Position numbers and translations under genes: made by a program
Notes under the pieces: model-generated
The model's database searches: none
Seen by the model: only the letters and a program-made list of their open reading frames with translations
What the model was told of the DNA's origin: nothing
In this document: positions 11,218 through 24,703 of the stretch, in pieces
How the letters are laid out: each line of letters opens with the position of its first letter
Numbering within the stretch: the first letter of the stretch is position 1
DNA from: Streptomyces humicola
Lineage (GTDB): Bacteria > Actinomycetota > Actinomycetes > Streptomycetales > Streptomycetaceae
Assembly (NCBI RefSeq): GCF_024436035.1
Contig: NZ_JANFNG010000007.1
Span: forward strand, 124,001 to 188,000
Direction of reading: 5' to 3'
Length of the DNA stretch: 64,000 nt

Positions 11218-11696
11218 TTGACGAACTGCACCGCGAAGTCGAGATCCTTGCCGCGCAGCAGCCCCTGCACGGCCTGCAAGTCGTCCCGGCTCTTCGACGA
11301 AACCCGCAGCTCGTCGCCCTGCACCTGGGCCTTGACGCCCTTCGGCCCCTCGTCCCGGATGATCTTGGCGACCTTCTTGGCGTTCTCCTGGGAGATGCCC
11401 TCCTGGATCGTGGCGAAGATCTTGTATTCCTTGCCGGATGCCTGCGGCTCACCCGCGTCCAGGGCCTTCAGCGACACACCGCGCTTGACGAGCTTGCCTT
11501 CGAAGACGTCGAGGATGGCCTTGACCCGTTCCTCGGAGTTGGCCCGCATCTCGATCTTCTCGCCCGACCACTCGATCGATGCGCCCACGTTCTTGAAGTC
11601 GTAGCGCTGCGCAATCTCGCGCGCGGCCTGGTTGAGGGCGTTGTCGACCTCTTGCCGCTCGACCTTCGAGACGATGTCGAAACTGGAGTCGGCCAT
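11208..11696 (-). CDS. yajQ: YajQ-family nucleotide-binding protein
   Basis: 162 residues, the usual family length. It begins [20 protein letters not shown] and ends [12 protein letters not shown], both highly characteristic of YajQ. The family adopts paired ferredoxin-like folds and has been reported to bind nucleotides including cyclic di-GMP. Located just before tRNA-Tyr, it is part of the conserved chromosome rather than the mobile block. Confidence 0.95.
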
Positions 11697-11864
11697 CTTC
11701 AGTTGGCTCCTTGCGTCGGGATACGGACGGTGAGCGCAAGCCTAGCCACCGCAGCCCGCCACGGGGCCGATCAGCCGAGTGGCGGACCACCCCCTGCCAT
11801 CAGGTATCGTTTACGTCGTTGCCACGGAGCAACGCCGGAGAGGCGTGCGCCGGGCACCTTCCTA

Positions 11865-11950
11865 GGCGGTGTGCCCGAGCGGCCAAAGGGAGCAGACTGT
11901 AAATCTGTCGGCTTACGCCTACGCAGGTTCGAACCCTGCCGCCGCCACCA
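11865..11950 (+). tRNA. tRNA-Tyr (GTA), CCA encoded
   Basis: Acceptor arms GGCGGTG and CGCCGCC, anticodon loop CTGTAAATC with GTA, a long variable arm (type II tRNA), T arm GCAGGTTCGAACCCTGC, and encoded CCA. This is the only complete copy; its 3' part is repeated four times downstream as attachment-site remnants. From memory, the SLP1 element of S. coelicolor also integrates in a tRNA-Tyr gene. Confidence 0.97.
11897..11948 (+). repeat. attL: 3' part of tRNA-Tyr, 52 bp
   Basis: Fifty-two bases from the anticodon arm to the start of CCA are identical to 21742-21793. They bound the AICE, and integration leaves the tRNA gene intact. Confidence 0.95.
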
Positions 11951-11961
11951 GGAAGAATCGG

Positions 11962-11988
11962 CCCTTGACCAGCAAGAACGGTCAGGGG
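11962..11988 (+). terminator. hairpin after tRNA-Tyr
   Basis: CCCTTGACC (11962-11970) and GGTCAGGGG (11980-11988) pair with one G-T wobble. It may terminate tRNA-Tyr transcription. A close copy with its flank recurs at 34308. Confidence 0.65.
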
Positions 11989-12116
11989 CTGATCGCTTTC
12001 CTGATCACTGCGGCTCCCCGCTGTTCCCCGTGGTTCCCCGCCTCATCTGGCACGCGTGTGGCACGAGCGTCCCACGACTTCTATTCAGCCCGGGGCAGCT
12101 AGGGGATCATCTGTGC

Positions 12117-12428
12117 ATGGTCGATGACGAGACTGGGGACGCAGCGGGCGAGTCGCACGAGGAGCTGAGCGGTGACGAGCTGGTCGAGGGGTCGCTGGGG
12201 TCATCAGCTTCGCTACTGACGGGGCGGATCCGCGGGCGGCTACCCATCCCCGGGGTCGGCGAGTTGACCTATCGCGGCAACCTCTGGAGACGTGTGCACA
12301 GGGTGGAGTTCCGCCCTTACGGACAGTCCGAGGTGATCCGATTCTCAGCGGACCGAGCCACGTTCTTCCAGATCGCGGACAGTGAGACCCTGGAAGAGGC
12401 CATGGCGATCATTGAGCGCTGTCTCTGA
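12117..12428 (+). CDS. hypothetical protein at the left end of the AICE
   Basis: 103 residues from MVDDETGDAAGE. The first 35 residues are acidic and probably disordered. The rest (GELTYRGNLWRRVHRVEFRPYG, IRFSADRATFFQIADSETLEEAMAIIERCL) looks like a compact beta-alpha domain. GGGG precedes the ATG at a loose spacing. No family recognised. It is the only plus-strand gene before the minus-strand cargo genes and may be accessory to the element. Confidence 0.6.
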   Translation: MVDDETGDAAGESHEELSGDELVEGSLGSSASLLTGRIRGRLPIPGVGELTYRGNLWRRVHRVEFRPYGQSEVIRFSADRATFFQIADSETLEEAMAIIERCL

Positions 12429-12482
12429 CCGAGGCTCCGCACGTGCTCACGCGGGCGGCGTAGCGGCTTTGGGCTGGAGCTG

Positions 12483-12590
12483 CCATGGGGCGAGAGATCG
12501 GGGCCCGTAAGCTGTTGGCGACTCGGGCGGTCTGTGGACCTGCCCGTTAAGGCCCGATGTGGGCCCCGATCTTCGAGGCTCGCCCCATGG
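12483..12590. repeat. long imperfect inverted repeat in a 363-base gap
   Basis: The arm at 12483-12505 (CCATGGGGCGAG, then AGATCGGGGCC) is matched in reverse at 12562-12590, which has six extra bases in the middle; about 56 bases separate the arms. The left arm and its upstream text recur at 35127-35146. The remainder of 12429-12791 is GC-rich with no convincing gene. It could be a structured transcript or a replication or transfer site of the element. Confidence 0.7.
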
Positions 12591-12791
12591 TGGCTGCGTA
12601 AAGCCGTGGAGCCGGCCGCCCCAGCCCCGTCGGGTCTCTTCACTCATGGCGTGATCGCTTCAGCCGCGCGCCCGGCGGAGCCGGGGCCGGAGCGGGGCGA
12701 AGACATGAGCGTCGGCCCCGGCGGTGAGCCGGGGCGCGCGCGGCGAGCGGGAGCGAGCCGCCTTGATGAGGTAGAGAAACCTGTAACAGGT

Positions 12792-13589
12792 CTAAGCGTC
12801 GGACGTTGCATCGCGGAGCAAGTGCAGCACTTCATCTCGGAGCGCAGGCGCAACCGCGATTGTGGCGGCGGAGTTCTCGTTGTGGGCACTGCCGTCCAAG
12901 TCGACTACGAGGGCACCGGCTTCCTTTGCGATGGCCACGCCCGCAGCGGTGTCCCATGGGTGATTCGACAGCATGATGCTTGCATCCAGCTTGCCAGCCG
13001 CGACCCACGCAAGATCGATTGCTGCTGATCCGAGCATGCGCACGCGCTGAGCGCGCTCAGAGAGGAGCCTTGTGATTGCCAGGCGGACTCGATTTTTCGT
13101 CGCAGCTTCGATACCTACGGCGTAGTCGCCAACGCTGACGATGGCGTCATGAAGCTGGGTTTTGCGGCTGGCGAACACCTGCCGTTCGCCGCAGAAGGAG
13201 CCGAGCCCTTGTGCGGCACTGAACCGAGATGCAAGAAATGGCAAGTCGATCACTCCGAGCACCGATTCGCGATTGCTTAGCAAGCCGAGAGAGATGCCGC
13301 AGAGGGGGATTTCACTTAGAAAGTTCGCCGTTCCGTCGAGGGGGTCGAGGACCCAAGTGAAATCTCGCCCTTCCCCGTAGGAACCGTTCTCTTCGCCAAA
13401 GAATCCGATATCTGGCGTCTCTTTGGCAAGGAACTCGCACAGCTCAGACTCTACGGCTAGGTCAACATCGGAGACCATGTCGCGGTCCCCCTTGGATTGA
13501 ACGGTTTTCGCTGGAGCTGCTAGAACCCTCTTTCTGGCTCTATCTACTGCTTCGTGGGCGACGGGGAGGAGTGAAGCTAGGTCAGGCAT
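12792..13589 (-). CDS. inositol monophosphatase family protein (AICE cargo)
   Basis: 265 residues from MPDLASLLPVAHEAV. Family metal sites are visible: DVDLAVESEL, the glutamate of FFGEENG, DPLDGTANF and HPWDTAAGVAIAKEAGA. The family removes phosphate from inositol or related sugar and nucleotide phosphates. The start overlaps the upstream regulator stop by eight bases with GGGAAG before it, so the two are translationally coupled. A palindrome, ACCTGTAACAGGT, ends at its stop. Such a phosphatase is not part of the usual AICE toolkit, where a NUDIX hydrolase often occurs; the substrate is unknown. Confidence 0.88.
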   Translation of the reverse strand: MPDLASLLPVAHEAVDRARKRVLAAPAKTVQSKGDRDMVSDVDLAVESELCEFLAKETPDIGFFGEENGSYGEGRDFTWVLDPLDGTANFLSEIPLCGISLGLLSNRESVLGVIDLPFLASRFSAAQGLGSFCGERQVFASRKTQLHDAIVSVGDYAVGIEAATKNRVRLAITRLLSERAQRVRMLGSAAIDLAWVAAGKLDASIMLSNHPWDTAAGVAIAKEAGALVVDLDGSAHNENSAATIAVAPALRDEVLHLLRDATSDA

Positions 13590-14442
13590 CGACTTCCCTT
13601 CTCTCCCACAGTGAGTTAAAGACCTGTTCGAAAATTTGATGCAATCCGCCATTGGCCCAACGCTTGCGAATCATGAACGTCGGCGAATCTACTCCTCGCG
13701 TCTCGGGCAGATACGGTTGCGCTATGCACAGCCCCTGATCGGCAAGGATGATGTTGAACCTGATGGGTTCGTCGTAGACCGCCATCTCCAGCCGTTGCTG
13801 TGCTTCGTCGGACAACCGAGGCCGCACGCGTTCTTGCAAAGTCATGATGTTGAGCGCTGTGAGCGCTGAGAGTTGTCCCGAGGGAAATCCCTCCTCGCGC
13901 TCACGCTCCCTGATGTATTGACCGTACGGCTTAAGGAAGAGGCACTTGAACGCGGTGCCCTCCTCGATCATTTCCCTGATCGCGCTATCTGAATAATGCT
14001 GGCAGATAAGATTAAGCGAAAGCCCGGCAGCCTTTACTTCGCCGGCCTCCCCGAAGACATCGGATAGTGGGACCCTAGCCAAGAACTCCGATCTACTGGA
14101 GTAGACGGCCGTGACATCCGCGAATTGGTCGCCAATCAGTTTTCCCAGAGGGTCATTTGGTTGACCTTCTGCTGACGTTTTGGCCGAGCCATGTCCGATC
14201 AGGCCCACTGCTACGAGAACGTCACCGGGTGGAACAGTACTGCTCTCCCAAGCCTCAACCGCTTCGGGCGTAACCGGCCAAGACAGAATAGAGGAAAGAA
14301 GTTCAGCGAACTCGCCATGGCTCAAGTTACCGGCCTCCCGAGTTGCCGCGATTTGGTTTCTCGCGAGGGCCGCGACATCCGGCCTGTAGGAAGTCCTTCC
14401 CTGCAAAGAGATCAAAGACGCGGTCTTCTCGTCGCGGGTCAC
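13582..14442 (-). CDS. XRE-like regulator with DUF5919-type sensor domain
   Basis: 286 residues. Residues about 25-80 resemble an XRE helix-turn-helix domain (LARNQIAATREAGNLSHGEF, VTPEAVEAWESS). The C-terminal 190 residues (YSSRSEFLARVPLSDVFGEA, LSLNLICQHYSDSAIREMIEEG, FNIILADQGLCIAQPYLPETRG) match my recollection of the DUF5919 domain of actinobacterial regulators. It sits in an operon with the inositol-phosphatase-like gene (8-base overlap) and follows the GntR gene. It probably senses a metabolite or nucleotide and controls the cargo, but this is inference. Confidence 0.75.
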   Translation of the reverse strand: MTRDEKTASLISLQGRTSYRPDVAALARNQIAATREAGNLSHGEFAELLSSILSWPVTPEAVEAWESSTVPPGDVLVAVGLIGHGSAKTSAEGQPNDPLGKLIGDQFADVTAVYSSRSEFLARVPLSDVFGEAGEVKAAGLSLNLICQHYSDSAIREMIEEGTAFKCLFLKPYGQYIREREREEGFPSGQLSALTALNIMTLQERVRPRLSDEAQQRLEMAVYDEPIRFNIILADQGLCIAQPYLPETRGVDSPTFMIRKRWANGGLHQIFEQVFNSLWERREVDA

Positions 14443-14457
14443 GCTCTCCCCCGATGG

Positions 14458-14952
14458 TCATCGGTCTCCGCTCGCGCGCTGGCGCTCGCCTGTGTTGTTC
14501 TGTCGTGCGGTGTCGTGCGGGTACGGCTGTCCCGTCCGAGCGTAGAGATCGATCAACCGGGCTTGCACTAGACCAACCGTCCGCCTGAGTTCGCCGACCT
14601 CCTCGCGCAGCGCATCAATGTCGGATGATGACTGCTGGACGGAGAGCCCTGATACCTCCTCGCGTAGTTCACTCAGGTCGCGTGCTAGGTCGTCCAACCC
14701 GATGCGCGCGCTGCGGCTCTGGTCTGGCGTCGCTCGCACATAGACGGCCTTGCCTGGCTGACCGTAGACCAGCCCCTCGTTTCGAAGCTCCTTGATCGCA
14801 GCGCGCACCACTGTGGTGGATGCCTTGTAGCGCTCTACGAGCTGCACGGTTGACGGCAGCGGCCCCCCAACTGGCAGTGCACCGCTCGCGATCTGCGACC
14901 GAAGATCGTCTGCGACGCGCTGGTAGGCGGGGCGCCCGATCATGTCGGTCAC
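14458..14952 (-). CDS. GntR-family regulator (KorSA-like)
   Basis: 164 residues. The N-terminal winged helix is typical (PAYQRVADDLRSQIASGALPVGGPLPSTVQLVERYKASTTVVRAAIKELRNEGLVYGQPGKAVYV). The C-terminal half is a long coiled coil (LARDLSELREEVSGLSV, IDALREEVGELRRTVGLVQ) rather than an effector domain. In pSAM2-type elements a GntR protein at this position represses transfer and replication genes. It is divergent from the plus-strand transfer operon, with a shared intergenic region carrying direct repeats. Confidence 0.88.
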   Translation of the reverse strand: MTDMIGRPAYQRVADDLRSQIASGALPVGGPLPSTVQLVERYKASTTVVRAAIKELRNEGLVYGQPGKAVYVRATPDQSRSARIGLDDLARDLSELREEVSGLSVQQSSSDIDALREEVGELRRTVGLVQARLIDLYARTGQPYPHDTARQNNTGERQRASGDR

Positions 14953-14968
14953 AAAGTGCCTCCCTTAC

Positions 14969-15080
14969 GCACATGGCTCAACAAGCCACACCTAGTGCAT
15001 CACAGTGCGCCGACACCTTCTAGGTGCGACCCAAGGTTGGTCGGCTTACAGCCTTGACATCCTTGTGCACATAGCTCAAC
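14969..15080. promoter_or_regulatory. divergent promoter region with direct repeats
   Basis: GCACATGGCTCAAC (14969-14982) and GCACATAGCTCAAC (15067-15080) are 14-base direct repeats, one near each divergent gene. The second lies within a candidate promoter beginning with TTGACA near 15055. They are good candidates for the operators of the GntR repressor. Confidence 0.6.
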
Positions 15081-15125
15081 CTTGTGTGTAAGGTCCTCAA
15101 GTCGAGCCTCACTCAAGGAGTTGGA

Positions 15126-15455
15126 ATGCCGTCCTTCAAGATCGACACATCGACCGCTGTCGTGTTCGTGGCGACCGCGCCGACTCCGAAGCTCGTCAGC
15201 AAGCAGACCGGTGAGATCGCGGTTGACCGGGAGACCGGCGCGAAGCTGATGACCGTGGGCCTGCTGATCTCCGACGAGGGCGAGGGGAACCTGTACCAGG
15301 TGACCGTCCCCGAGACCGGGATCCAGGCGGACTTGGCGCCGGGCACGCCGGTGTCGGTGATCGGGCTCCGGGCGCGGGACTGGGAGAACACCTTCAACGG
15401 CCAGACCCGGCACGGGATCTCGTTCCGCGCCGTCGCGATCACGGCGGGGGTCTGA
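15126..15455 (+). CDS. SCO3933-family regulatory protein
   Basis: 109 residues from MPSFKIDTSTAVVFVATA, preceded by AAGGAG. The body is beta-rich (GLLISDEGEGNLYQVTVPETG, GTPVSVIGLRARDW), consistent with a small OB-like fold. Proteins of this kind are the first gene of the transfer operon in many AICEs and sit directly before the FtsK-type gene, as here (4-base gap). The exact role is not settled. Confidence 0.75.
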   Translation: MPSFKIDTSTAVVFVATAPTPKLVSKQTGEIAVDRETGAKLMTVGLLISDEGEGNLYQVTVPETGIQADLAPGTPVSVIGLRARDWENTFNGQTRHGISFRAVAITAGV

Positions 15456-15459
15456 CGCC

Positions 15460-16836
15460 ATGTCGGATCTCGCGACGCTGCTGGAGGTGGCCGGGCCGCT
15501 GGCGGGTGCTGGCGGTCTCGGCTACGCCAAGGTGCGGGCACCGGGCGTGTACTGGTCCCTGGTGGGCCTGCCGTTGACCTGGGGCCGCTTCACCTTCTCC
15601 TACCGGTCCACGATGGACGTGTGCGGTCTGACGGTGCGGCCGTCCGCCCTGCGCGCGTTCGTCGTGCGCAACGTCGCCCGCCGTGAGGTCCTGCCGGTTC
15701 CGCCGAAGGTCCGCTGGGTCCGCGGTACCTCGACCGGCCTGCGGGTACGGCTGCGGCTTCCCGCCGGACTGGAACCGGCGGACGTGGCTGCCGCATCCGA
15801 ACGGCTGCGGCACGCCTGGGGCGTTCACGCGGTGCGCGTGACTGAGGTCAAGCCGGGCGTGGTCGAGCTGCGAATGACCGGTTACGACGTGCTGGGCCGG
15901 GTGCGCCTGCCGCGCCGCCTGCCGTCCGGCCCGATGCTGGTCCCGGTGGCGATGCGGGAGGACGGGACCGTGTTCGTCCGCGACTACCGGCAGATACCGC
16001 ACGCCCTGACCTTGGGCGCGAACCAGTCAGGCAAGTCGATGTATCAGCGCAACCTGATCAAGGGCCTGTCCCGGCTGCCGGTGGCGCTGGTGGGCATCGA
16101 CTGCAAGCGCGGTGTGGAACAAGCCCCGTACGCGCCCCGCCTGTCGGCGCTGGCCACCAACCCGGAGCAAGCCGCCGGACTACTCGATGCGCTCGTGACC
16201 GAGATGGAAGCCCGGTTCGACCTGCTCAAGGCGTATCAGGGCATCGCCCCGACCATGCCGGATGCAGAGATCACATCCGACATCTGGGGCCTGCCCGCGG
16301 AGGTGCGGCCGGTGCCGGTCGTGGTCCTGGTCGACGAGGTGGCCGAGCTGTTCTTGACCGCCACCAAGAAGGAGGAGGAACGCCGGGACCGGATGGTCAC
16401 GCAGTTGATCCGCCTCGCGCAGCTTGCCCGCGCGGTCGGCATCTACCTGGAGGTCTGCGGGCAGCGCTTCGGCTCCGAGCTGGGCAAGGGCGCCACCATG
16501 CTCCGCGCACAGCTCACCGGCCGCGTGGTGCACCGCGTCAACGACAAGCAGACCGCCGAAATGGGCCTGGGGGACATCTCACCCGAGGCGATGTTCGCCG
16601 CGACCACGATCCCCGTGGACAAGCCCGGTGTGGCCGTGGCCGGTGACTCCTCCGGCGGCTGGTCCCGCATCCGCACCCCGCACACCACCCTCGCCGACAC
16701 GGCCGCCGTGTGCCGCCAGAACGCGCACCTTGTGCCGGACCTTCCCGCCCTCGCCCCCTGGCGCCCCGTCGCCCCGGCCGTTGCCGATCCGGTCGACGCG
16801 CCGTCGCTGGTCAAGCCCCACGTGGTGACCGACTAA
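15460..16836 (+). CDS. FtsK/SpoIIIE-type DNA translocase (TraSA-like)
   Basis: 458 residues. Walker A is GANQSGKS (about 186-193) and Walker B is VVVLVDEVAEL (about 287-297), followed by VCGQRFGSELGKGATMLRAQLTGRVVHRV, typical of the FtsK motor. The first 60 residues have limited hydrophobic character. In Streptomyces a single translocase of this type moves double-stranded plasmid DNA between hyphae. It starts 4 bases after the upstream gene stop. Confidence 0.9.
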   Translation: MSDLATLLEVAGPLAGAGGLGYAKVRAPGVYWSLVGLPLTWGRFTFSYRSTMDVCGLTVRPSALRAFVVRNVARREVLPVPPKVRWVRGTSTGLRVRLRLPAGLEPADVAAASERLRHAWGVHAVRVTEVKPGVVELRMTGYDVLGRVRLPRRLPSGPMLVPVAMREDGTVFVRDYRQIPHALTLGANQSGKSMYQRNLIKGLSRLPVALVGIDCKRGVEQAPYAPRLSALATNPEQAAGLLDALVTEMEARFDLLKAYQGIAPTMPDAEITSDIWGLPAEVRPVPVVVLVDEVAELFLTATKKEEERRDRMVTQLIRLAQLARAVGIYLEVCGQRFGSELGKGATMLRAQLTGRVVHRVNDKQTAEMGLGDISPEAMFAATTIPVDKPGVAVAGDSSGGWSRIRTPHTTLADTAAVCRQNAHLVPDLPALAPWRPVAPAVADPVDAPSLVKPHVVTD

Positions 16837-16920
16837 CACCCCCCTCTCTACCGGTCGGCGTGACCGCCTCACGCCAAGTCCCTACCCCCGCCATGCCCGA
16901 AACCGAAAGGAGTGATCGCC

Positions 16921-17115
16921 ATGGCCGCTCGCAAAACCACCCGCCGCGCCCTCACCGAGCCCGCCGCCCCGCCCGCGCCGGACCCGTGCCCGGTCTGCAA
17001 GGGCGCCGGAGAGGTCGCCAACACGGTGCGCGTCGGCCGCAGGCATCGCGTCGTCGGCCAGCAATCCGGCTTCTGCCTGGCCTGCTTCGGCACCGGCGAA
17101 GCCCCCGCCACCTGA
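16921..17115 (+). CDS. 64-residue zinc-knuckle protein
   Basis: The start MAARKTTRRALT follows GAAAGGAG. Two Cys pairs occur, CPVCKGAGEV and CLACFGTGEA, of the DnaJ-like CxxCxGxG type, so it probably binds one zinc ion. It is similar in layout to the 60-residue protein at 18480-18662 in the same operon. Function unknown; such genes are common in AICE transfer operons. Confidence 0.75.
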   Translation: MAARKTTRRALTEPAAPPAPDPCPVCKGAGEVANTVRVGRRHRVVGQQSGFCLACFGTGEAPAT

Positions 17116-17147
17116 CCACCACGCCCCCTCGAAGGAGGTGAACGACC

Positions 17148-17813
17148 ATGCACCGACTCCGATTCGACGCCGTAATCATCCAAGCCGTGATCGCTGGAGC
17201 ATTGTCCTTCGCCCACCTGCACGACATCGCCAACGCCGCTGGACAACACGGCTGGAAAGGCTGGGCCTACCCCGTCAGCGTCGATCTGCTGCTCGTTGCC
17301 GCATGGCGTCGCATGCGGACCCTGCGCGCCAACGGCCAACCGGCCCGCGCCGCCTGGACCTGGTTCGCCATCTCCCTGACCGCCTCATTGGGCGCCAACG
17401 TCGCCACCGCCGGACTGCTCGACCTGCGGCACGTCCCCGCCGTCCTGCGCATCCTGGTCGCCGGATGGCCCGCCCTGGCCTTCCTCGGCGGCACCCTCCT
17501 CGCCCACACCCACACCACCACCCCGGCACCCGCCACCGAACCCGCCCCCGCACCGGTCGAGGAAGGCGCAGAGCCGGTCACGGTCGAACGCGCCCCCGAC
17601 CCCGCCCCGCAACTGCCGCCGCCCACGCCGACACCCGCCCCGGCCGCGACCACCGCCGCCGCGAGTGTGCCGGTCGCGTTGGTTGACCACGCCCGCAAGG
17701 TCGCCGACGCCCACCACGCCCGCACCGGCAACCGGATCGACACCGAAACCCTGCGCGCCCGCCTCGGCATCACGCCCGCCCTGGCCGACGCCATCGCCAC
17801 CCAACTCACCTGA
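17148..17813 (+). CDS. DUF2637-containing spread protein
   Basis: 221 residues. The N-terminal half has four hydrophobic helices (FDAVIIQAVIAGALSFAHLHDIA, VSVDLLLVAAWRRM, WFAISLTASLGANVATAGLLDL, RILVAGWPALAFLGGTLLAH) of the DUF2637 type. A Pro/Ala linker leads to a small C-terminal helical domain (DHARKVADAHHARTG, LRARLGITPALADAIATQL). AAGGAGG precedes the ATG. Related Spd proteins help plasmids spread within the mycelium. Confidence 0.8.
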   Translation: MHRLRFDAVIIQAVIAGALSFAHLHDIANAAGQHGWKGWAYPVSVDLLLVAAWRRMRTLRANGQPARAAWTWFAISLTASLGANVATAGLLDLRHVPAVLRILVAGWPALAFLGGTLLAHTHTTTPAPATEPAPAPVEEGAEPVTVERAPDPAPQLPPPTPTPAPAATTAAASVPVALVDHARKVADAHHARTGNRIDTETLRARLGITPALADAIATQLT

Positions 17814-17827
17814 CAGGAGGTCAGAGC

Positions 17828-18016
17828 ATGCCGCGCCCGAACCGCTTCTACGACGTGATCCGCATCGGACCCGTCCAGGTCGGCACCCACCACGACGGCC
17901 GCGGACGCACCAAGCACACCGCCGCCTGCACCGCCCCCGGCTGCGGCTTCAGCGCCGACTACGTCGACCGCTCCGCCGCCGAACTCGCCGCCCGCACCCA
18001 CCACTGCAACCCCTGA
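17828..18016 (+). CDS. small mobile-element transfer protein
   Basis: 62 residues with RFYDVIRIGPVQVGTHHDGRG and a possible zinc site (C-x5-C then HHC). GGAGG lies upstream. It is a conserved short protein of AICE transfer operons annotated as a mobile element transfer protein; biochemistry unknown. Confidence 0.7.
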   Translation: MPRPNRFYDVIRIGPVQVGTHHDGRGRTKHTAACTAPGCGFSADYVDRSAAELAARTHHCNP

Positions 18017-18036
18017 CCCCGGAAGGACAACCCGCC

Positions 18037-18387
18037 ATGCTGCTCCGCCCGACGTACCCCAAACCCGACACCTACACCCCACCGCCGGTCACTCCCACCG
18101 CGATCGTCCCGGCCGCTGGCGCGCCCGCCCCGGCCCCGGCTCCTGCCCCGGTTCCGGTCGCGGTACCGCCTGCCCCGGCACCGGCACCCACGCCGGTCTC
18201 GTCCGTCCCAGCGGTGCGGCTCACCCCGGCCGGACTGGTCACCGTCGCCGCCGGTGGTGCCGGTGTGGTTCTCGTCGTTGGCGCGGTCCTGGTCTCCCTG
18301 CTGCTCGCGGTCGCCGTCACCGGCGTCTCCGTCGCCGTGGTCGCGGTCGTCCTGCGCCTGCTCATCAAGGACCTGCACAAGCACTGA
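18037..18387 (+). CDS. SpdB-like membrane spread protein
   Basis: 116 residues from MLLRPTYPKPDTYTPPP. A Pro/Ala-rich N-terminal half is followed by two closely spaced hydrophobic helices (LVTVAAGGAGVVLVVGAVLV, LLAVAVTGVSVAVVAVVLRLL). GGAAGG precedes the start. Size, layout and position fit the SpdB proteins of Streptomyces plasmids. Confidence 0.72.
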   Translation: MLLRPTYPKPDTYTPPPVTPTAIVPAAGAPAPAPAPAPVPVAVPPAPAPAPTPVSSVPAVRLTPAGLVTVAAGGAGVVLVVGAVLVSLLLAVAVTGVSVAVVAVVLRLLIKDLHKH

Positions 18388-18479
18388 ACGGCCCCGGGGC
18401 GGCTCTCTCGCCAAAGATCCGCCGCCCCGGCGCCTGCACCCCCTTCCAGACCCAACGGACCCGAAAAGGGAGCCCCATC

Positions 18480-18662
18480 ATGCCTCAGCACGCCCAGAAC
18501 ACCCGCGTCTGCCGCGACTGCGACGGTTTCCCCACCGTCGCCATCACGACCGGCACTCGCCACGCCGACGGCACCCGCGCCACCTTCCGCGTCACCTGCC
18601 CGACCTGCAAGGGCACCGGCTACATCGCCCCCGCCTCCGTGCTCGCCCGCGCCGGGCGGTGA
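18480..18662 (+). CDS. 60-residue zinc-knuckle protein
   Basis: CRDCDGFPT and CPTCKGTGY give two CxxC knuckles around a beta hairpin (VAITTGTRHADGTRATFRVT). It has the same design as the 64-residue protein at 16921-17115. AAGGGAG precedes the start, and its stop overlaps the next gene. Function unknown. Confidence 0.72.
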   Translation: MPQHAQNTRVCRDCDGFPTVAITTGTRHADGTRATFRVTCPTCKGTGYIAPASVLARAGR

Positions 18663-18865
18663 CCGCCGTGGCTGACCTCACCCCGACCCCGGACCGCCCC
18701 GGCCTGCACGTGAGCAAGCCGTCCCCGTCCGCCCCCGCCCGAGGATCCGCCGTCTGCCACTGCGGCGCCCGCGCCACCGCCACGGGTGACGTCCAGGTCA
18801 AGGCGCTGGTGGGCGGCTACACCGCCAACCACGGACCCGCCCACCAGAAGGAGGGGCGTAAGTGA
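18659..18865 (+). CDS. small hypothetical AICE protein
   Basis: About 68 residues from a GTG that overlaps the previous stop (GTGA); a second GTG at 18668 is possible. It contains the single pair CHCGARATATG and a tail NHGPAHQKEGRK. Its own stop overlaps the GTG of the replication initiator, so it is translationally coupled on both sides. No family recognised. Confidence 0.6.
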   Translation: MTAVADLTPTPDRPGLHVSKPSPSAPARGSAVCHCGARATATGDVQVKALVGGYTANHGPAHQKEGRK

Positions 18866-20250
18866 CCGACGCCGCCACCATGGCGGGCCTGGACCCGACC
18901 ACCCTCAACGACCTGTTGCGCGTGGTCGGGTCTCCCGGCTTCGACCGCATCCAAGAACAGATCCGCCGCACGGGCGGCTGCTCTGATCCCATCCGCCTTG
19001 CGGGTACAACCAAAACGGTCGACCCGGCCACCGGCACAGTGCTGCACTACTACGCGACCGACGAGGAACCCGGCGGCGTCCTCCGCGTCGCCTGCGGCAA
19101 CCGCCGAGCCTCCCGCTGCCCCTCCTGCGCCTGGACCTACGCCGGGGACACCTATCACCTCATCCGCGCCGGGCTGACCGGTGACCCCGCGAAGGGCATC
19201 CCGCAAACGGTGCGCGATCACCCGCGGGTCTTCGCCACCCTCACCGCCCCGTCCTTCGGCCCTGTCCACAACCGCCCGGCGTCCGGTCGCTGCCGCTGCG
19301 GTACCCAGCATGCCGACGACGCCCCGGAGTTGGGCACGGCCCTGGACCCGGAGACCTACGACTACGCCGGGGCGGTGTTGTGGAACAACCACGCCTCCGA
19401 CCTGTGGCGCTACTTCACCATCTACCTGCGCCGCGAGATCGCCCGCCGGGCCGGACTCACCCAGAAAGCCGCCCGCGAACAGTCCCGCGTCAACTTCGGC
19501 AAAGTCGCCGAATACCAAAAACGCGGAGCCGTCCACTTCCACGCCGTCATCCGCTTCGACGGCCCCGACGGCCCCGACTCCCCGCCCCCCACCTGGGCCA
19601 CCCTCGACCTTCTCACCGACGCCATCCACGCCGCCGCCCGCCGCGTCGAAGTCACCGTAGACCCCGCCGGGCAACACCCCGCCCGGGTGCTGCGGTGGGG
19701 CACACAGCTCGACATCCAGCCCATCGGCGCGTTCGGCAACGGCGAAGAGATCACCGAACAAGCCGTTGCCTCCTACGTGGCCAAGTACGCCACCAAAGCG
19801 GCAGAGACCACGGGCACGATCGACCGGCGCATCGGCAACGTTGAAGCCCTCGACTTGTTCGACCTGCCCGACCACACCCGGCGCCTGATCGAAGCCTGCC
19901 TGACCCTCCACGCCGACTACCCGGGCCGCAAGCTCCGCGACTGGGCTCACATGCTCGGCTTCCGCGGCCACTTCTCGACCAAATCCCGCCGCTACTCCAC
20001 CACCCTCGGCGCGCTGCGCCAGACCCGTGCCGACTACCGCGCCGCGCAGGAACGCGCCCGCCTCGGCCTGCCCGACCCCGACGACAACCCGGAGGCAACA
20101 ACCCTCGTGCTCGCCCACTGGACCTACGCCGGACACGGCCACACCGCCGGCGAATCCTGGCTCGCAGCCAACATCGCCCGCGACATCCACGCCAACCGCG
20201 AGACCGCCCGCGAAGCGCTCGCCGACATCGACGACACGGGGGAGTGGTGA
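18862..20250 (+). CDS. RepSA-like rolling-circle replication initiator
   Basis: 462 residues. Cys-rich N-terminal segments (CGNRRASRCPSC; CRCGTQHAD) are followed by the HUH motif in GAVHFHAVIRFDG (His near 225 and 227) and the catalytic tyrosine helix AVASYVAKYATK (Tyr near 305 and 309). This order is that of RepSA-type HUH endonucleases of AICEs. The GTG overlaps the previous stop. Confidence 0.9.
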   Translation: MTDAATMAGLDPTTLNDLLRVVGSPGFDRIQEQIRRTGGCSDPIRLAGTTKTVDPATGTVLHYYATDEEPGGVLRVACGNRRASRCPSCAWTYAGDTYHLIRAGLTGDPAKGIPQTVRDHPRVFATLTAPSFGPVHNRPASGRCRCGTQHADDAPELGTALDPETYDYAGAVLWNNHASDLWRYFTIYLRREIARRAGLTQKAAREQSRVNFGKVAEYQKRGAVHFHAVIRFDGPDGPDSPPPTWATLDLLTDAIHAAARRVEVTVDPAGQHPARVLRWGTQLDIQPIGAFGNGEEITEQAVASYVAKYATKAAETTGTIDRRIGNVEALDLFDLPDHTRRLIEACLTLHADYPGRKLRDWAHMLGFRGHFSTKSRRYSTTLGALRQTRADYRAAQERARLGLPDPDDNPEATTLVLAHWTYAGHGHTAGESWLAANIARDIHANRETAREALADIDDTGEW

Positions 20251-20252
20251 CC

Positions 20253-20477
20253 ATGGCAGATCGCCTGCTGACCGTGGCACAGGCTGCTGAGCTGCTCGGA
20301 ACGCTTGAAACGTCCGGGGAACGTTTCCCACGCCGACTGATCGAACAACGTCGGATCGCGTTCGTGAAAGTCGGCCGCTACGTGCGCATCCCCGAGAGTG
20401 CCGTTGAGGCGTACATCAAGGCCAACACCGTCGAGCCGGTCACGGCTCGCTCTCGGCGACTGCGGGCGGTGGTCTGA
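20253..20477 (+). CDS. xis: excisionase (Xis)
   Basis: 74 residues from MADRLLTVAQAAELLG. The MerR-like/Xis winged helix is clear (LLTVAQAAELLG, RRLIEQRRIAFVKVGRYVRIPESAVEAYI). Three alternative starts lie within nine bases; the GTG at 20247 would overlap the replication gene stop. Its last base is the first base of the integrase start (TGATG), the usual coupled xis-int arrangement. Confidence 0.85.
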   Translation: MADRLLTVAQAAELLGTLETSGERFPRRLIEQRRIAFVKVGRYVRIPESAVEAYIKANTVEPVTARSRRLRAVV

Positions 20478-21700
20478 TGCCCAACAGCAAGGGGCGCCGC
20501 CGTCGCTTTGGTGCCGTCCGTCAGCTCAAGTCCGGTCGCTGGCAGGCGCGATACCGCGATCCCGCTACCGGAGAGCTGCAGGCCGCGCCCTACACGTTCG
20601 ACACCAAGACGGACGCGGATGTGTGGCTTACAACCACTGAGGCAGAAATCATCCGGGGCACCTTCCGCGATCCCGATGCGGGAAAGATCACCGTAAAAGA
20701 GTGGGGAGAGCGCTGGTTTCAGGCGGCTTCGCCCCACCTGAAGCGTCGAACCGTCACCCTCTACGCGGGATTGCTCCGCCTGTGGATCTATCCCCGGATG
20801 GGCGCCTACGAGCTGTCGGCGGTTCGCCCGATTCATGTCAAGGAATGGTTGCTCAGCCTCCAGAAAGCGGGCCTGAGCGCGTCGCGCATCCGCACGGCGT
20901 ACCGCGTGCTGTCGCAGGTCTTCGCCTCCGCCGTGGACAACGAGCTGATCGCCGTTACTCCGTGCCGGGGGATCAAGCTGCCGCGACTGCCCGAGACTGA
21001 ACCGCACATCCTCAGCACGGCGGAGATCGAGCGTCTGATCTCGCACCTTCGCCCGCCGCATGACCTCCTGGTCAAGCTCCTGGCCTATGCCGGGCTGAGG
21101 ATTGGGGAGGCCTTTGCTCTGCGCCGAATGGATGTCGACCTGGCCAACGGGATGATCTGGGTTGATGAAGCGCTCCTGGAGGATGCTGGTCAGCAGTTCT
21201 TCGACACCCCGAAGTCCCACCAGAAGCGCCCCCTTGCCTTGCCCACCTACCTGGTCAAGCATCTGCGTGCCCACCTGGACGCTCGTGTTGAGGACGAGCC
21301 TGAAGCACTGCTGTTCCTCGGCCGTACGCGCCGACCGCTTCGCTACAAGTCGTGGCGCCGTACACACTTCGACAAGGCTGTCGACCTTGCCGGACTGAAG
21401 GACGTGACGCCGCAGGATCTCCGTGCTACGCACGCATCGCAGGTCGCCGACCGCCACGGTGTCATGGCTGCGGCCAGACGTCTCGGCCATGCCAATGCCA
21501 GTGTGACCACTCGGCACTACGCCCGTTCGCGTGACGGCCAGGATGCCGAGATCGCCAAGCAGCTCAACGCCGATCATCAGAAGGCGCAGCGGGCGCGTAC
21601 CAAGAAGGCCAAAGCTCCAAAGCGCCCCAACGGCAACGTGGCACGGAAGTTGCACGACCACAGCAACGAAGATCCAAAATCCACAGAGCAAGGCGCCTGA
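20477..21700 (+). CDS. int: tyrosine recombinase, AICE integrase
   Basis: 407 residues. It has an N-terminal AP2-like arm domain, a core-binding domain, and a catalytic domain with Arg in YAGLRIGEA (about 208), Arg in DLRATHAS (about 316), His in GHANASV (about 338) and Tyr in TTRHYARS (about 348). The position three residues before the second Arg, usually His (HDLRHT), is Gln here. The gene ends 41 bases before attR, as expected for an AICE. Confidence 0.92.
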   Translation: MPNSKGRRRRFGAVRQLKSGRWQARYRDPATGELQAAPYTFDTKTDADVWLTTTEAEIIRGTFRDPDAGKITVKEWGERWFQAASPHLKRRTVTLYAGLLRLWIYPRMGAYELSAVRPIHVKEWLLSLQKAGLSASRIRTAYRVLSQVFASAVDNELIAVTPCRGIKLPRLPETEPHILSTAEIERLISHLRPPHDLLVKLLAYAGLRIGEAFALRRMDVDLANGMIWVDEALLEDAGQQFFDTPKSHQKRPLALPTYLVKHLRAHLDARVEDEPEALLFLGRTRRPLRYKSWRRTHFDKAVDLAGLKDVTPQDLRATHASQVADRHGVMAAARRLGHANASVTTRHYARSRDGQDAEIAKQLNADHQKAQRARTKKAKAPKRPNGNVARKLHDHSNEDPKSTEQGA

Positions 21701-21741
21701 CCTGCGCGGACGGCTCCGCATTCAAGATCAATCGCCACAGT

Positions 21742-21793
21742 CTGTAAATCTGTCGGCTTACGCCTACGCAGGTTCGAACCCTGCCGCCGCCAC
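21742..21793 (+). repeat. attR: second copy of the tRNA-Tyr 3' segment
   Basis: Identical over 52 bases to 11897-11948. The sequence to its left is not the 5' half of a tRNA, so this is an attachment site and not a gene. It is both attR of the intact AICE and attL of the next, decayed element. Confidence 0.95.
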
Positions 21794-21801
21794 ACGGAAG
21801 A

Positions 21802-21841
21802 AACGGCCTCTCACCAGCGGAAACGCGGGTGAGAGGCCGTT
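21802..21841 (+). terminator. hairpin right of attR
   Basis: Perfect 13-bp arms AACGGCCTCTCAC (21802-21814) and GTGAGAGGCCGTT (21829-21841), followed by CTCGTT. A closely related hairpin lies at the same distance from the third att copy (30104-30136). Confidence 0.75.
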
Positions 21842-21962
21842 CTCGTTGATCAAGGCAGGTGAGGGCGAAAAAGGGCTTCTGTCCCGGTATGTCTCACCTC
21901 AATCCCACTGTTGATCATTGTTTGTGGGGCATGTGTGGGGCACGGATCGGCCCCGGCCGGGC

Positions 21963-22040
21963 CTACTCCCACTGGCGTAGTGCCTGGTCAATGCGCTGAT
22001 TGGCGAGGTGAGCCGCACCGTCCAAGCACTTGGCGTAGAC
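21963..22040 (-). pseudogene. C-terminal remnant of a second integrase
   Basis: Only the last 25 residues survive (VYAKCLDGAAHLANQRIDQ, ending ALRQWE and stop), including the nucleophile tyrosine region. They are nearly identical to the longer remnant at 30699-30900. The sequence switches abruptly at about 22040 to an unrelated acetyltransferase fragment on the other strand. Confidence 0.8.
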
Positions 22041-22406
22041 CCCCGGCGGGCCGAGGACGAGGCCAGCGCCCGCGGCTGCCGCGCGGCCGTGCTCTACACG
22101 ATCACCTTCCAGGTCCCCGGCTTCTACCGGAAACGAGGGTGGAAGCACCTGGGAGAGGTCCCCTGCGATACGCCGGGCACCAGCCGCGTCTTCATGACCA
22201 AAGAACTCGCTGAGTCACTCAAACTCGCTGACACCGCCCAGCCTTCGTTGTCACAGGACATCCTGGCTGTGGCCGATGCACCTGATTGCCCAGATGGCCT
22301 GGTCAAAGCCCAGCGCGGGCTGATCGCGGTTAAGCAGGAGTCCAAGCTCCTCGCCTCGCTCCCCGCTGGGTCACCGAGCGCGTCGATGCCGGTCAAGCGC
22401 CGCTAG
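22041..22406 (+). pseudogene. GNAT acetyltransferase C-terminal fragment
   Basis: RRAEDEASARGCRAAVLYTITF, followed by PGFYRKRGWKHLGEV and TSRVFMTKEL, is the C-terminal half of a GNAT N-acetyltransferase (the acetyl-CoA binding helix, then the PGFY-x-GW turn). The N-terminal half is absent. The frame continues to 22406 into sequence I do not recognise. It is fused by a deletion or recombination to the integrase remnant just left of it. Confidence 0.65.
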
Positions 22407-22742: not shown

Positions 22743-23826
22743 TCACTGTTGGTGGATGTTGGCGGAGGCGATAGTGCCGTTGCTCACGGTATACGTACCG
22801 GTGAAGTACCGGTGAGATCCGTCGGTTTGTGTGGCGTCGATTTTAACGCTCACGGTGTCGCCGGACACGGAGGTCACCGTGACGGAATCCGACGCGGTGT
22901 TCGAGAAGCCATTTACGAAGGAATCGTACGATGTCCCCAGGTTCTTGCCACCCAGCCCCCATGCGCGCGCGTAATCGTGAGCGTTGATGGCGGCGTAATA
23001 GTCCTGGACGACCTGTTGGACACCCGGGGTTGTTGGGGCATTCGAAGCCGGTGGTGGTGCTGGTGGTGTCACTGTCCCGCCGTTGCTGGGCGGTGACGGC
23101 GCTGGGGTGGGAGCGCCCTGGGTCGGCGGACGGGTAGGCGCGCCCTGCGCCGGCGGGGGGTTGGTCTGGGCTGTGGCGGGAGGCCTTTGTGTGTTATGGG
23201 CGCTGTTGATCAACTCCACCGCCGACAAGCCGCCTCCTATGACGGCCGCTATCAGGGAGAGGGCCATGATCAACAAGCGGGCGCGTGGTTGCCGCCTACG
23301 CTGGCCGGCGCCGTGTCCGGCCTTCCCGGTTGGGCCGGGGCCGCTTGTGCCTGCCGTTCCTGCGGCCGCAGACCGCGGTGTCGTGGGCGAGCGGGTTATC
23401 GGGGGTTGGGCTTGTGCGGGGGTCGGCGGGGACGGTGCCGTGCGTATCGTTTCGGGTCTGCGGTGGTCGAGGGGCGCTGTCGGGCGTGGAGGTGTGGCCG
23501 TCGATCCGGTGGCCAGGTCGCTGAGCGCCGTTTGTAGCTGCTCGGCGCGTGGGCGGTGATCGGGGTTCTTGCGCAGTAGCGCCTCAATCACCGGAGCCAG
23601 CGGTCCGGCGTGGCGTGCTTGCCCCGGCCGTTCGTTAATCACCGCTTGCAGGGCGTCGGAGGTGGTCGATCGGCGGAAGGGGGAGTCCCCCTCCACAGCG
23701 GCGTATAGGGTCGCGCCCAGCGACCAAAGATCGGAAGCTGGGGTGGGAGGATGGCCCATGACCTGCTCCGGCGAGAGGTACTCGGGTGATGCGACGGCTC
23801 CCAATGTGCGGACGGGATCGCTCCTA

Positions 23827-24703
23827 AGGGTTGTCCCGTAAGTAATCTTGATGTGGGATGATCTTGGGTGTGGCTGGTGTGATCACGGCGTCGGAGCCCT
23901 CCTGGATAGAGCCGTTCTCCGGACTGAGCCCGCGCGCCTTCGGGAAGTTGGTGACCGTGCTGCGGCGTGAAGGCGCCGATGCGCCGGGGCGAGGCCGGCC
24001 GTGGAGTCTTCCACTGGAAGACCGTGTGCTGCTGGTGGCGGCCTACTGGCGCACGAACCTGACCATGCGCCAACTCGCCCCGTTGTTCGGTGTGTCGAAG
24101 TCCGCCGCGGACCGGATCATCGATCACCTTGGCCCGCTGCTGGCGCTGCAGCCGCGTAAGCGGTTCCGCAAGGACGCGGTGCTCATCGTGGACGGCACCT
24201 TGGTCCCCACGCGCGACCACACGGTGGCCGAGCAGTCGAAGAACTACCGGTATTCGACCAACCACCAGGTCGTGATCGACGCCGACACCCGGTTGGTCGT
24301 CGTAGTCGGCCGGCCGCAGCCCGGCAACCGTAACGACTGCCGGGCCTGGAGCGAGTCCGGCGCGAAGGAGGCCGTGGGGAACACCACGACGATCGCCGAC
24401 GGCGGGTACATCGGCACCGGCCTGGTCATCCCGCACCGGCGACGGAGGAAGGGCGAGGAATTGCCTGCGTGGAAGCAAGAACACAACAAGTCCCACAAAC
24501 GGGTCCGCGCCCGCGTCGAGCATGTCTTCGCCCGCATGAAGGGCTGGAAGATATTGCGCGACTGCCGGCTCAAGGGCGACGGCGTGCACCACGCCATGCG
24601 CGGAATCGCCCACCTGCACAACCTCAACCTCGCCGGATAGGCGAAGCGCACCCACAGCCGACCACACCCACACTAGGCCGTAGATCATTTACGGGACAGC
24701 CCT
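23827..24703 (+). mobile_element. IS5-family insertion sequence, 877 bp
   Basis: The ends are inverted repeats: AGGGTTGTCCCGTAAGTAAT on the left, and on the right, read inward, AGGGCTGTCCCGTAAATGAT. It is flanked by a TA duplication (23825-23826 and 24704-24705) and carries one transposase gene. The intact frame and near-matching ends suggest a recent insertion. Confidence 0.9.
23858..24640 (+). CDS. IS5-family DDE transposase
   Basis: 260 residues. A helix-turn-helix region (LTMRQLAPLFGVSKSAADRII) precedes the catalytic domain: DDE candidates are Asp in VLIVDGTLVP, Asp in ADGGYIG and Glu in RVEHVFARMKGWKIL. The layout is that of the DDE_Tnp_4 group of IS5 elements. It is transcribed opposite to the kinase it interrupts. 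Other in-frame starts lie nearby. Confidence 0.92.
   Translation: MILGVAGVITASEPSWIEPFSGLSPRAFGKLVTVLRREGADAPGRGRPWSLPLEDRVLLVAAYWRTNLTMRQLAPLFGVSKSAADRIIDHLGPLLALQPRKRFRKDAVLIVDGTLVPTRDHTVAEQSKNYRYSTNHQVVIDADTRLVVVVGRPQPGNRNDCRAWSESGAKEAVGNTTTIADGGYIGTGLVIPHRRRRKGEELPAWKQEHNKSHKRVRARVEHVFARMKGWKILRDCRLKGDGVHHAMRGIAHLHNLNLAG

What the first reader, a model, noticed from the sequence alone, without database searches (positions are those of the whole stretch)
12792..14442. Inositol-phosphatase-like enzyme plus DUF5919 regulator as AICE cargo
Within an otherwise standard AICE, a translationally coupled pair (8-base overlap) encodes a full IMPase-type phosphatase and an XRE/DUF5919 regulator next to the KorSA-like repressor. 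pSAM2-type elements often carry a nucleotide hydrolase in this region; a sugar/inositol phosphatase in its place hints at a signal or small-molecule switch controlling transfer, or an antiphage or stress function.
Basis: partly seen in the sequence, partly recalled or inferred. Interest (0 to 1): 0.6.

Follow-up and report, generated by a model that had tools for sequence, protein, structure and literature searches.

The report
Swappable phosphatase-sensor cassette in conjugative elements
A small mobile DNA element of a soil actinomycete carries a phosphatase gene coupled to the gene of a probable small-molecule sensor, at a place where related elements keep other sensor-enzyme pairs, which suggests that such elements use small metabolites to control their own transfer.

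Summary
In detail: at 14442-12792 (minus strand) genes for a DUF5919 regulator and a complete inositol-monophosphatase-family enzyme overlap by 8 bases, 15 bases behind a KorSA-like GntR gene, in a 9.8-kb pSAM2-type AICE. The pair is strict: 80 of 80 loci found by the DUF5919 sequence alone have the phosphatase directly downstream, catalytic residues kept. 46 of 80 loci have a TraB, Rep or Int match within about 10 kb (42 TraB or Rep); 34 do not, 22 of these with full flanks, so it is AICE-enriched, not AICE-exclusive. The predicted DUF5919 fold is phospholipase-D-like with the HKD motif altered, matching among others the sugar-sensing regulator TrmB. A distantly homologous sensor is paired with a NUDIX hydrolase in 29 of 30 loci. 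Beside GntR genes, other elements carry other cassettes (NUDIX, guanylate-kinase-like, RibD/deaminase, isochorismatase); 4 of 24 such loci share the window's operator. Best reading: a Pif-like transfer-control or immunity cassette in which the phosphatase removes, and the sensor reads, a phosphorylated metabolite. Function is inferred; ligand, substrate and phenotype are untested.

The parts
12792..13589 (-). inositol-monophosphatase-family phosphatase, 265 aa
   Evidence: Pfam Inositol_P 3.3e-53; E66, D82, D85, T87, D213 kept in 90-91 of 92 aligned rows; the seven NCBIfam models hit, all equivalogs (HisN, inositol-1-monophosphatase, CysQ and others), are below cut-off
13582..14442 (-). HTH + DUF5919 regulator, 286 aa; 8-base overlap with the phosphatase gene
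   Evidence: DUF5919 4.1e-26; AlphaFold2 model mean pLDDT 85.1: Cro/C1(POU)-like HTH about 20-85, PLD-like domain 108-286
14458..14952 (-). KorSA-like GntR repressor, 164 aa, first gene of the presumed operon
   Evidence: Pfam GntR 4.3e-15; 46, 41 and 40% identity to the GntR genes of the three plasmid triads
15052..15074 (-). conserved operator-like site upstream of the GntR gene, overlapping a TTGACA of the other strand
   Evidence: same site at or just before the GntR gene in seven of nine further DUF5919-phosphatase loci of this HTH type, and in 4 of 24 loci with other cassettes (L158, L159, L202, L203); none at 3 mismatches or fewer in 20 control windows
14963..14982 (.). second, GntR-proximal copy of the 20-nt repeat (85% to 15061-15080)
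15084..15455 (+). Pra-like (SCO3933-family) regulator, divergent from the GntR operon
   Evidence: NF051478 145.7 bits, cut-off 80
15460..16836 (+). FtsK/SpoIIIE-type DNA translocase (TraB-like)
   Evidence: Pfam FtsK_SpoIIIE 2.9e-31
17148..17813 (+). DUF2637 (transfer-region) protein
   Evidence: Pfam 1.6e-19
18862..20250 (+). RepSA replication initiator
   Evidence: NF041486 831.5 bits, cut-off 700
20477..21700 (+). tyrosine integrase
   Evidence: Pfam Phage_integrase 1.7e-19
11865..11950 (+). tRNA-Tyr (gta), integration target
11893..11980 (.). left att repeat
   Evidence: 88-nt direct repeat, 89% to the right copy
21738..21825 (.). right att repeat
   Evidence: 88-nt direct repeat

Best explanation
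The pair is the sensor-enzyme half of a transfer-control cassette that, in the window, sits in one run of genes with the KorSA-like repressor. Shown by sequence: strict pairing, gene layout, kept catalytic residues, sensor homology to NUDIX-linked sensors, other sensor-enzyme pairs beside related repressor genes, an operator shared with some of them. Inferred: the DUF5919 protein binds element DNA through its HTH and reads a phosphorylated small molecule (sugar, polyol or nucleotide-like) with its HKD-less phospholipase-D-fold domain, as archaeal TrmB reads sugars; the phosphatase lowers that molecule in cells that own the element.
For: 80 of 80 DUF5919 loci have the phosphatase coupled downstream. 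Catalytic and metal residues kept in 90-91 of 92 rows. Run of GntR, regulator and phosphatase genes in the window and on three Streptomyces plasmids; divergent from the Pra-like gene, as kor and pra are in the S. coelicolor remnant (PMC8584621, passages). Sensor homologous to the NUDIX-linked sensor (hhalign probability 96.5, E 7.9e-10), which has NUDIX beside it in 29 of 30 loci and the phosphatase in 0 of 30. Same operator before GntR genes followed by IMPase, guanylate-kinase-like (2 loci) and NUDIX (2 loci) cassettes. PLD-like fold with TrmB among the best matches. Pif, a NUDIX protein of pSAM2, acts in the recipient to prevent redundant exchange (PMC3218068, passages).
Against: 34 of 80 loci have no TraB/Rep/Int match, 22 of them with at least 9 kb on both sides, so the pair can live outside conjugative elements. 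In 32 of the 39 loci with a GntR match the nearest one is on the opposite strand, so the single run of genes seen in the window is not the common layout. 20 of 24 loci with other cassettes lack the operator, two guanylate-kinase loci of plasmids and the one in the own genome among them. The NUDIX-linked sensor was found in 100 of 167 genomes of the order, and its surroundings beyond the next gene were not surveyed. Of 11 inspected proteins with the second HTH type but without DUF5919, eight showed no recognised coupled enzyme. pSAM2 Pif itself could not be compared. Some cassette enzymes are not hydrolases (kinase-like, reductase), which weakens a simple 'destroy the signal' reading. No ligand, substrate or phenotype is known.
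Confidence: 0.5

Rival explanations
1. A stand-alone metabolic regulator-enzyme pair: the regulator controls its own phosphatase in response to a sugar or polyol phosphate of the host, and elements carry it as a beneficial accessory without a role in transfer.
For: 34 of 80 loci lack TraB/Rep/Int matches, and 98 larger neighbours of 32 of these loci share no common family (at most 4 of 98 in one family), as for a stand-alone unit; TrmB-like fold.
Against: 42 of 80 loci have TraB or Rep against 0 of 20 control windows; in the window the pair directly follows the repressor gene, and other sensor-enzyme pairs occupy the corresponding place elsewhere.
Confidence: 0.25
2. A stability or addiction-like module: the enzyme (phosphatase, kinase, NUDIX, deaminase) neutralises a harmful metabolite, or makes one, so that loss of the element is punished.
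For: Cassettes are compact, varied and tied to repressor genes; the regulator of a guanylate-kinase-type cassette has a weak Zeta-toxin-like match (1.4e-4, 21.8 bits, cut-off 22.3).
Against: The phosphatase has an ordinary complete active site and family; no toxin-like partner is recognised in the window cassette; nothing here tests lethality.
Confidence: 0.1
3. Anti-phage defence or interference with other elements by depleting a nucleotide-like signal.
For: Mobile location; hydrolases of nucleotide-like molecules are common in defence (general knowledge).
Against: No PADLOC match for the phosphatase or the regulator; no record of the phage collection carries the regulator; no relative found in viral contigs.
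Confidence: 0.07

Closest known systems
pSAM2 korSA-pif (NUDIX conjugal immunity factor; Possoz et al. 2003, not read, known here through passages of PMC3218068; that korSA and pif are clustered is recalled)
   Same: small enzyme gene beside a KorSA-like GntR repressor in a RepSA/TraB/Pra AICE
   Different: enzyme is of the inositol-monophosphatase family, and a DUF5919 sensor gene lies between; immunity not tested
XRE + NUDIX (+ HD) gene clusters of AICEs and plasmids (mdp-nud-xre of PMC3218068; L152, L153, L154, L208 here)
   Same: HTH protein with a homologous sensor domain, hydrolase directly downstream
   Different: NUDIX instead of phosphatase; sensor only distantly alike (Pfam DUF5919: L152 23.2 bits, just under the cut-off; L146 15.4; L153 none)
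Archaeal TrmB/TrmBL2 regulators
   Same: DNA-binding domain plus PLD-like-fold domain; Z 11.4 and 12.2 to the model
   Different: other type of HTH (recalled); no sequence match among solved structures; tied with FAM83 and close to PLD nucleases, so the ligand class is not shown
SAV2148-type HEPN + DUF5919 proteins of Streptomycetaceae
   Same: DUF5919 domain, and the stretch before it matches the end of the HEPN_SAV2148 model weakly (0.0023)
   Different: longer open frames (mostly over 420 aa) in the listed rows; 278 of 293 genomes of the order have a match of one kind or the other, and in the listed rows of this type query residues before about 77 are not matched
Bacterial inositol monophosphatases (SuhB, HisN, CysQ relatives)
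   Same: family, metal and catalytic residues
   Different: below the cut-off of each of the seven NCBIfam models hit; own marks D155-Y156, N166, N209, and no Glu at position 206 in 91 of 91 rows with a residue there

Membership tests
pSAM2-type AICE | att repeats at a tRNA gene, tyrosine integrase, RepSA, FtsK/TraB-type translocase, KorSA/Pra-like regulators | tested here: met
Inositol monophosphatase superfamily (PF00459) | profile match over the whole domain and kept metal/catalytic residues | tested here: met
   181.4 bits, cut-off 27; residues, their role recalled
HisN / inositol-1-monophosphatase (SuhB) / CysQ equivalogs | score above the curated cut-off | tested here: not met
   147.3 of 275.15; 118 of 332; 92.8 of 228.8
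DUF5919 (PF19319) | score above the gathering cut-off | tested here: met
   92.1 bits, cut-off 23.5
PLD superfamily, catalytic | H-x-K-x4-D motif | tested here: inconclusive
   fold matches; the stretch with the right spacing reads R228-x-N230-x4-D235, R in 92, N in 87, D in 81 of 93 rows; register assigned by spacing, not by superposed coordinates
TrmB-like sugar-sensing regulator | sugar binding by the PLD-like domain | not testable with these tools
   only fold similarity, tied with FAM83 and near PLD nucleases
Pif-type conjugal immunity factor | NUDIX motif | tested here: not met
   the only Pfam family hit by the enzyme is PF00459
Pif-type conjugal immunity factor | presence in the recipient blocks transfer | not testable with these tools
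   needs mating assays
Known anti-phage systems (PADLOC) | match to a defence model | tested here: not met
   no match for phosphatase or regulator up to E 0.1; the GntR protein matches Csa3 weakly, 1e-4

The most novel reading that the evidence does not exclude
Actinomycete conjugative elements carry interchangeable sensor-enzyme cassettes (phosphatase, NUDIX, HAD, guanylate-kinase-like, RibD/deaminase, isochorismatase, creatininase) next to a KorSA-type repressor; each makes the element recognise its own presence through its own small molecule, a chemical mating-type code for conjugation, with Pif as the one member seen so far by experiment.
Probability: 0.3. Interest if true: 0.82.

Novelty: new variant of a known kind. 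Interest (0 to 1): 0.6.

Why it matters
How Pif blocks redundant transfer was called unknown in PMC3218068 (passage). If the NUDIX gene is one of a series of enzymes, each with a matched sensor, the open question becomes concrete: find the metabolite that the sensor binds and the enzyme changes. The phosphatase version is a good entry point, because phosphatase substrates can be screened directly and the sensor can be purified for ligand binding. It would also give a function class to DUF5919, a name found in no paper of the held library.

Tried and rejected
Fixed chromosomal locus: rejected as the main picture (46 of 80 loci with a TraB, Rep or Int match), but 34 remain without; a Pfam tally of 98 larger neighbours of 32 of those 34 loci (L095 and L106 left out) showed no shared family. 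Three Actinoallomurus loci (L098, L105, L107) may have similar neighbourhoods, judged only from similar frame lengths and three PAC2 and three aldo/keto reductase matches in the tally, so local fixation is possible there. The TraB/Rep/Int/GntR models were built from genes of these same loci, and some matches are weak (for example L117 TraB 77 bits, several Int matches under 50 bits).

Known enzyme identity: HisN, SuhB and CysQ were considered; all below cut-off. I considered arguing against inositol phosphate from the missing Glu at position 206 (equivalence to human IMPA1 E213 is recalled; of the two other own-genome phosphatases with Glu there, the alignment of one is gappy nearby). The argument is weak, because the closest solved inositol monophosphatase (2p3n) appears from the printed alignment to have Thr there.

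Antiphage role: no support. Riboswitch or other RNA: only the tRNA was found by Rfam in 11500-22200. SCO3932 operator motif from PMC8584621: not enriched, 10 matches against 13.07 expected. Relatives in viral contigs: none for either sensor type. First genome-contig scan with the single protein gave nothing; the alignment scan worked. The correlation of sensor C-domain and phosphatase divergence (0.83, 0 of 500 permutations; N-terminal part 0.57) fits co-inheritance, but the N-terminal value is lowered by the two HTH types not being alignable. Papers on inositol monophosphatase plus conjugative elements: no hit in one search and two off-topic papers in another (listing only). TrmB and PLD fold: no hit in one search.

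Duplicates kept in counts: the 92 phosphatase rows and 93 regulator rows contain loci fetched twice (by matching coordinates or contig lengths, L047/L059, L048/L063, L049/L071 at least).
Full report
What is there. The window holds a 9.8-kb AICE between two 88-nt repeats (11893-11980 and 21738-21825, 89% alike) at a tRNA-Tyr gene. It has RepSA (831.5 bits, cut-off 700), an FtsK/TraB-type translocase, DUF2637, an SCO3933-family protein and a tyrosine integrase on the plus strand. On the minus strand are a GntR gene (14952-14458), the DUF5919 regulator (14442-13582) and the phosphatase (13589-12792), with a 15-base gap and then an 8-base overlap. The SCO3933 protein is described as homologous to Pra, and SCO3932/SCO3933 (kor/pra) share an intergenic control region with two repressor sites (PMC8584621, passages only). 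The window has the same divergent arrangement, so the phosphatase and regulator belong to the repressor's side of the switch.

Is the pair more than a local accident? In 293 genomes of the order, 3 (own included) have the full-length regulator, while 278 have some match at E 1e-10 or better; in the rows listed these others are longer proteins that match only from about residue 77-89 on. In 394 genomes of the class, 7 (own included) match at E 1e-40 or better. I fetched the eight non-self loci; all eight have the phosphatase directly after the regulator. Three Streptomyces plasmids have GntR > DUF5919 > phosphatase; all three have a WhiB gene nearby, two DUF2637 and one FtsK. An 11.85-Mb Nonomuraea record filed as a plasmid has the pair beside Rep, TraB and Int matches. 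A scan of the genome collection (84,980 species by the tool's description) with an alignment of the regulators gave 130 relatives, of which the tool keeps the best 80. In 80 of 80 the phosphatase model matches on the same strand at the regulator's end; one (L126) is a partial match of 59 bits, one (L130) overlaps out of register, and one locus (L073) has an extra, broken regulator copy. The loci were chosen by the regulator only, so this is a real partnership in many genera of Actinomycetes (record titles).

Mobile or fixed? With models built from neighbours in these same loci, 46 of 80 loci have at least one of TraB, Rep and Int within about 10 kb; 42 have TraB or Rep, 33 have all three, 4 have Int alone; 39 of 80 have a GntR match somewhere in the locus, the nearest being on the opposite strand in 32. 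Some matches are weak. One more locus (L055) has plasmid-type DUF2637 and WhiB genes. Of 20 arbitrary 20-kb windows from four genomes, none has TraB or Rep, 2 have an integrase and 1 a GntR match. Of the 34 without TraB/Rep/Int, 22 have at least 9 kb on both sides, so contig ends do not explain them. tRNA genes occur in 26 of 46, 7 of 34 and 1 of 20 of these sets, of unequal total length. The pair is strongly tied to conjugative elements but also lives elsewhere.

The enzyme. In 92 aligned rows (79 of the 80 loci plus 13 others, some loci twice) E66, D82, D85, T87 and D213 are kept in all but one or two rows; their role as metal and catalytic residues is recalled from the family. The subfamily has its own marks: D155-Y156, N166 and N209 nearly invariant, and never Glu at position 206, where both other phosphatases of the own genome have Glu. 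NCBIfam equivalogs for histidinol phosphatase, inositol-1-monophosphatase and CysQ all score well below cut-off. So it is an active-looking enzyme of unassigned substrate.

The sensor. The AlphaFold2 model (51 aligned sequences, mean pLDDT 85.1; residues 1-16 and 88-96 below 50) shows a helical N-terminal domain and a C-terminal alpha/beta domain. Against solved structures the N-terminal part matches POU/Cro-like HTH domains (for example 1e3o, Z 9.0, rmsd 2.0, 68 residues), which by the tool's own note is middling for a helical domain. The C-terminal part matches the phospholipase-D-like fold: TrmBL2 (5bqt, Z 12.2, rmsd 4.3, 141 residues), FAM83B (5qhm, Z 11.6, rmsd 3.1, 139), TrmB sugar-binding domain (2f5t, Z 11.4, rmsd 2.9, 131), NucT (6ehi, Z 11.2, rmsd 3.2, 138) and Nuc (1byr, Z 10.2, rmsd 3.3, 140). 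The first three are ties. In Foldseek's own ranking FAM83 leads and TrmB is fourteenth (E 8.5e-4). At the spacing of the HKD motif the family has R-x-N-x4-D (R in 92, N in 87, D in 81 of 93 rows), so I read it as a pseudo-enzyme that binds rather than cuts; that register is by spacing only. Two N-terminal HTH types are joined to the same C-terminal domain and the same enzyme: 10 of 93 rows have the window's motif, 62 of 93 the motif of the second type, 21 neither, some of these being truncated frames.

Sensor type and enzyme type go together. A search with the second HTH type (13 of 296 genomes, 16 places) also found proteins without DUF5919. Of the 11 such loci inspected, L146 is followed by a NUDIX gene (by similarity to other NUDIX genes here), L138 by a HAD hydrolase (Pfam) and L135 by a 399-aa frame; the other eight, mostly weaker matches with long C-terminal parts, showed no recognised coupled enzyme. 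The L146 C-terminal domain and those of XRE proteins on plasmids L152-L154, all followed by NUDIX, are distant relatives of DUF5919: hhalign probability 96.5, E 7.9e-10 for the set; with Pfam's DUF5919 model L152 reaches 23.2 bits against a cut-off of 23.5, L146 15.4 bits, and L153 is not hit. For the L152 sensor 100 of 167 genomes of the order matched; of the 30 loci returned (the best matches) 29 have the NUDIX gene beside it (24 by the script's gap rule, five more where long stop-to-stop frames overlap; L231 has none) and 0 have the phosphatase. Conversely only 1 of the 80 phosphatase loci contains that NUDIX family at all, 2.7 kb away.

Other cassettes beside GntR genes. Plasmids carry: HTH/P-loop protein > guanylate-kinase-like enzyme (L158, L159, L166, L170); HTH-TPR protein > RibD-type reductase, with a deaminase in four of five (L161, L162, L167, L168, L171); an HTH protein sharing part of the window regulator's N-terminus > isochorismatase (Nocardia L044, L160); GNAT directly (L165); PP2C directly (L164); and XRE > NUDIX about 1.3 kb away (L152) (alignments; families tested on one member of most kinds). 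FtsK, TraM or DUF2637 genes are annotated nearby in L044, L152, L159, L160, L161, L165, L166, L168, L170 and L171; none of these three in L158, L162, L164 and L167, where the genes on that side are mostly WhiB or hypothetical. I picked these hits from longer lists (259 and 54 records), so they show variety, not frequency. One picked hit (L169) had no transfer genes and no such cassette. Of four regions picked by the second HTH type, L163 has a creatininase gene and L157 an NTF2-like gene directly downstream; L155 and L156 have no recognised enzyme there. In chromosomal Streptomyces elements GntR is followed by XRE-TPR > NUDIX (L202; L203 by the same GntR and NUDIX matches, its middle gene not read) or by the guanylate-kinase cassette (L204, L205, L207, and L206 in the window's own genome). 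AICE L209 shares 71-75% Rep and 58-62% TraB identity with its five best phosphatase-bearing matches each but has the HAD cassette (its integrase is no more than 43% alike to any here); L210 shares RepSA (50%), TraB (43%), a Pra-like (38%) and a GntR gene with the window's type of element but has another pair.

A shared operator. Upstream of the GntR start lies an imperfect palindrome followed by GGTTGTCAAGG or nearly so. With 3 or fewer mismatches it was found in the window (15052-15074) and in seven of nine other loci of its HTH type (L040, L041, L045, L046, L053, L054, L055; not L042 or L057). Of 24 loci tested with other cassettes it was found in four: L158 and L159 (guanylate-kinase cassette), L202 and L203 (NUDIX cassette). 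It was absent from the other 20, including L166, L170 and the own genome's L206, and from 20 control windows at that level. That one control site serves elements with three different enzymes is the clearest sign of cassette exchange, though it covers a minority of the cassettes. Which protein binds it is inferred (KorSA-type autoregulation).

Mechanism, with the status of each step. Shown by sequence: pairing, gene layout, kept active site, relation of the two sensor types, different cassettes beside related repressors and in some cases one operator. Inferred from fold: ligand sensing by an inactive PLD-like domain. Inferred from Pif, a NUDIX protein that acts in the recipient to prevent redundant exchange (PMC3218068, passages and its section 12; Possoz 2003 itself not read): the phosphatase lowers a phosphorylated signal in element-bearing cells, and the regulator reports its level to the transfer genes. 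A metabolic pair without transfer role remains a serious rival.

Novelty. AICEs with GntR, XRE and NUDIX genes are known, and PMC3218068 describes an mdp-nud-xre cluster in AICEs; PMC11706625 (passages) states the same roles for GntR, XRE and NUDIX. I found no paper in the held library that mentions DUF5919, and none on inositol monophosphatase in conjugative elements of actinomycetes in two searches; most subscription papers are not held. I rate it a new variant of a known kind, with a wider and bolder reading that the data allow.

Noticed in passing
L206 (G000:C4:124000-143000): The window's own genome has a second mobile-looking element with a KorSA-like GntR gene followed by the P-loop/guanylate-kinase-type cassette, so one host holds two different cassettes.
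   Followed up: partly
window 22743-25241: Two minus-strand frames that look like the halves of a Ser/Thr kinase gene flank a plus-strand transposase-like frame (23858-24640), as if an insertion sequence had split the kinase gene (read by eye, not searched).
   Followed up: no
L040 (NZ_CP108257.1): On the Streptomyces sp. NBC_00057 plasmid the triad is followed within 10 kb by type I-C CRISPR genes.
   Followed up: no
L073 17224-17661: A second regulator-phosphatase copy in Nonomuraea ceibae with the regulator frame broken and a full-scoring phosphatase match.
   Followed up: no
G000:C66:192966-197001: Two neighbouring genes for the NUDIX-type PLD-like XRE sensor in the own genome; similar doublets in a few other genomes of the order, such as G013:C2 and G002:C19.
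   Followed up: no
L155, L156, L157: Mycobacterium plasmids carry proteins with the second HTH type and an unrelated C-terminal domain, one directly followed by an NTF2-like protein.
   Followed up: partly
L210 10875-12074: In this RepSA-type AICE the place of the enzyme is taken by a 399-aa open frame with a zinc-protease-like HExxxH-type stretch (read by eye).
   Followed up: no
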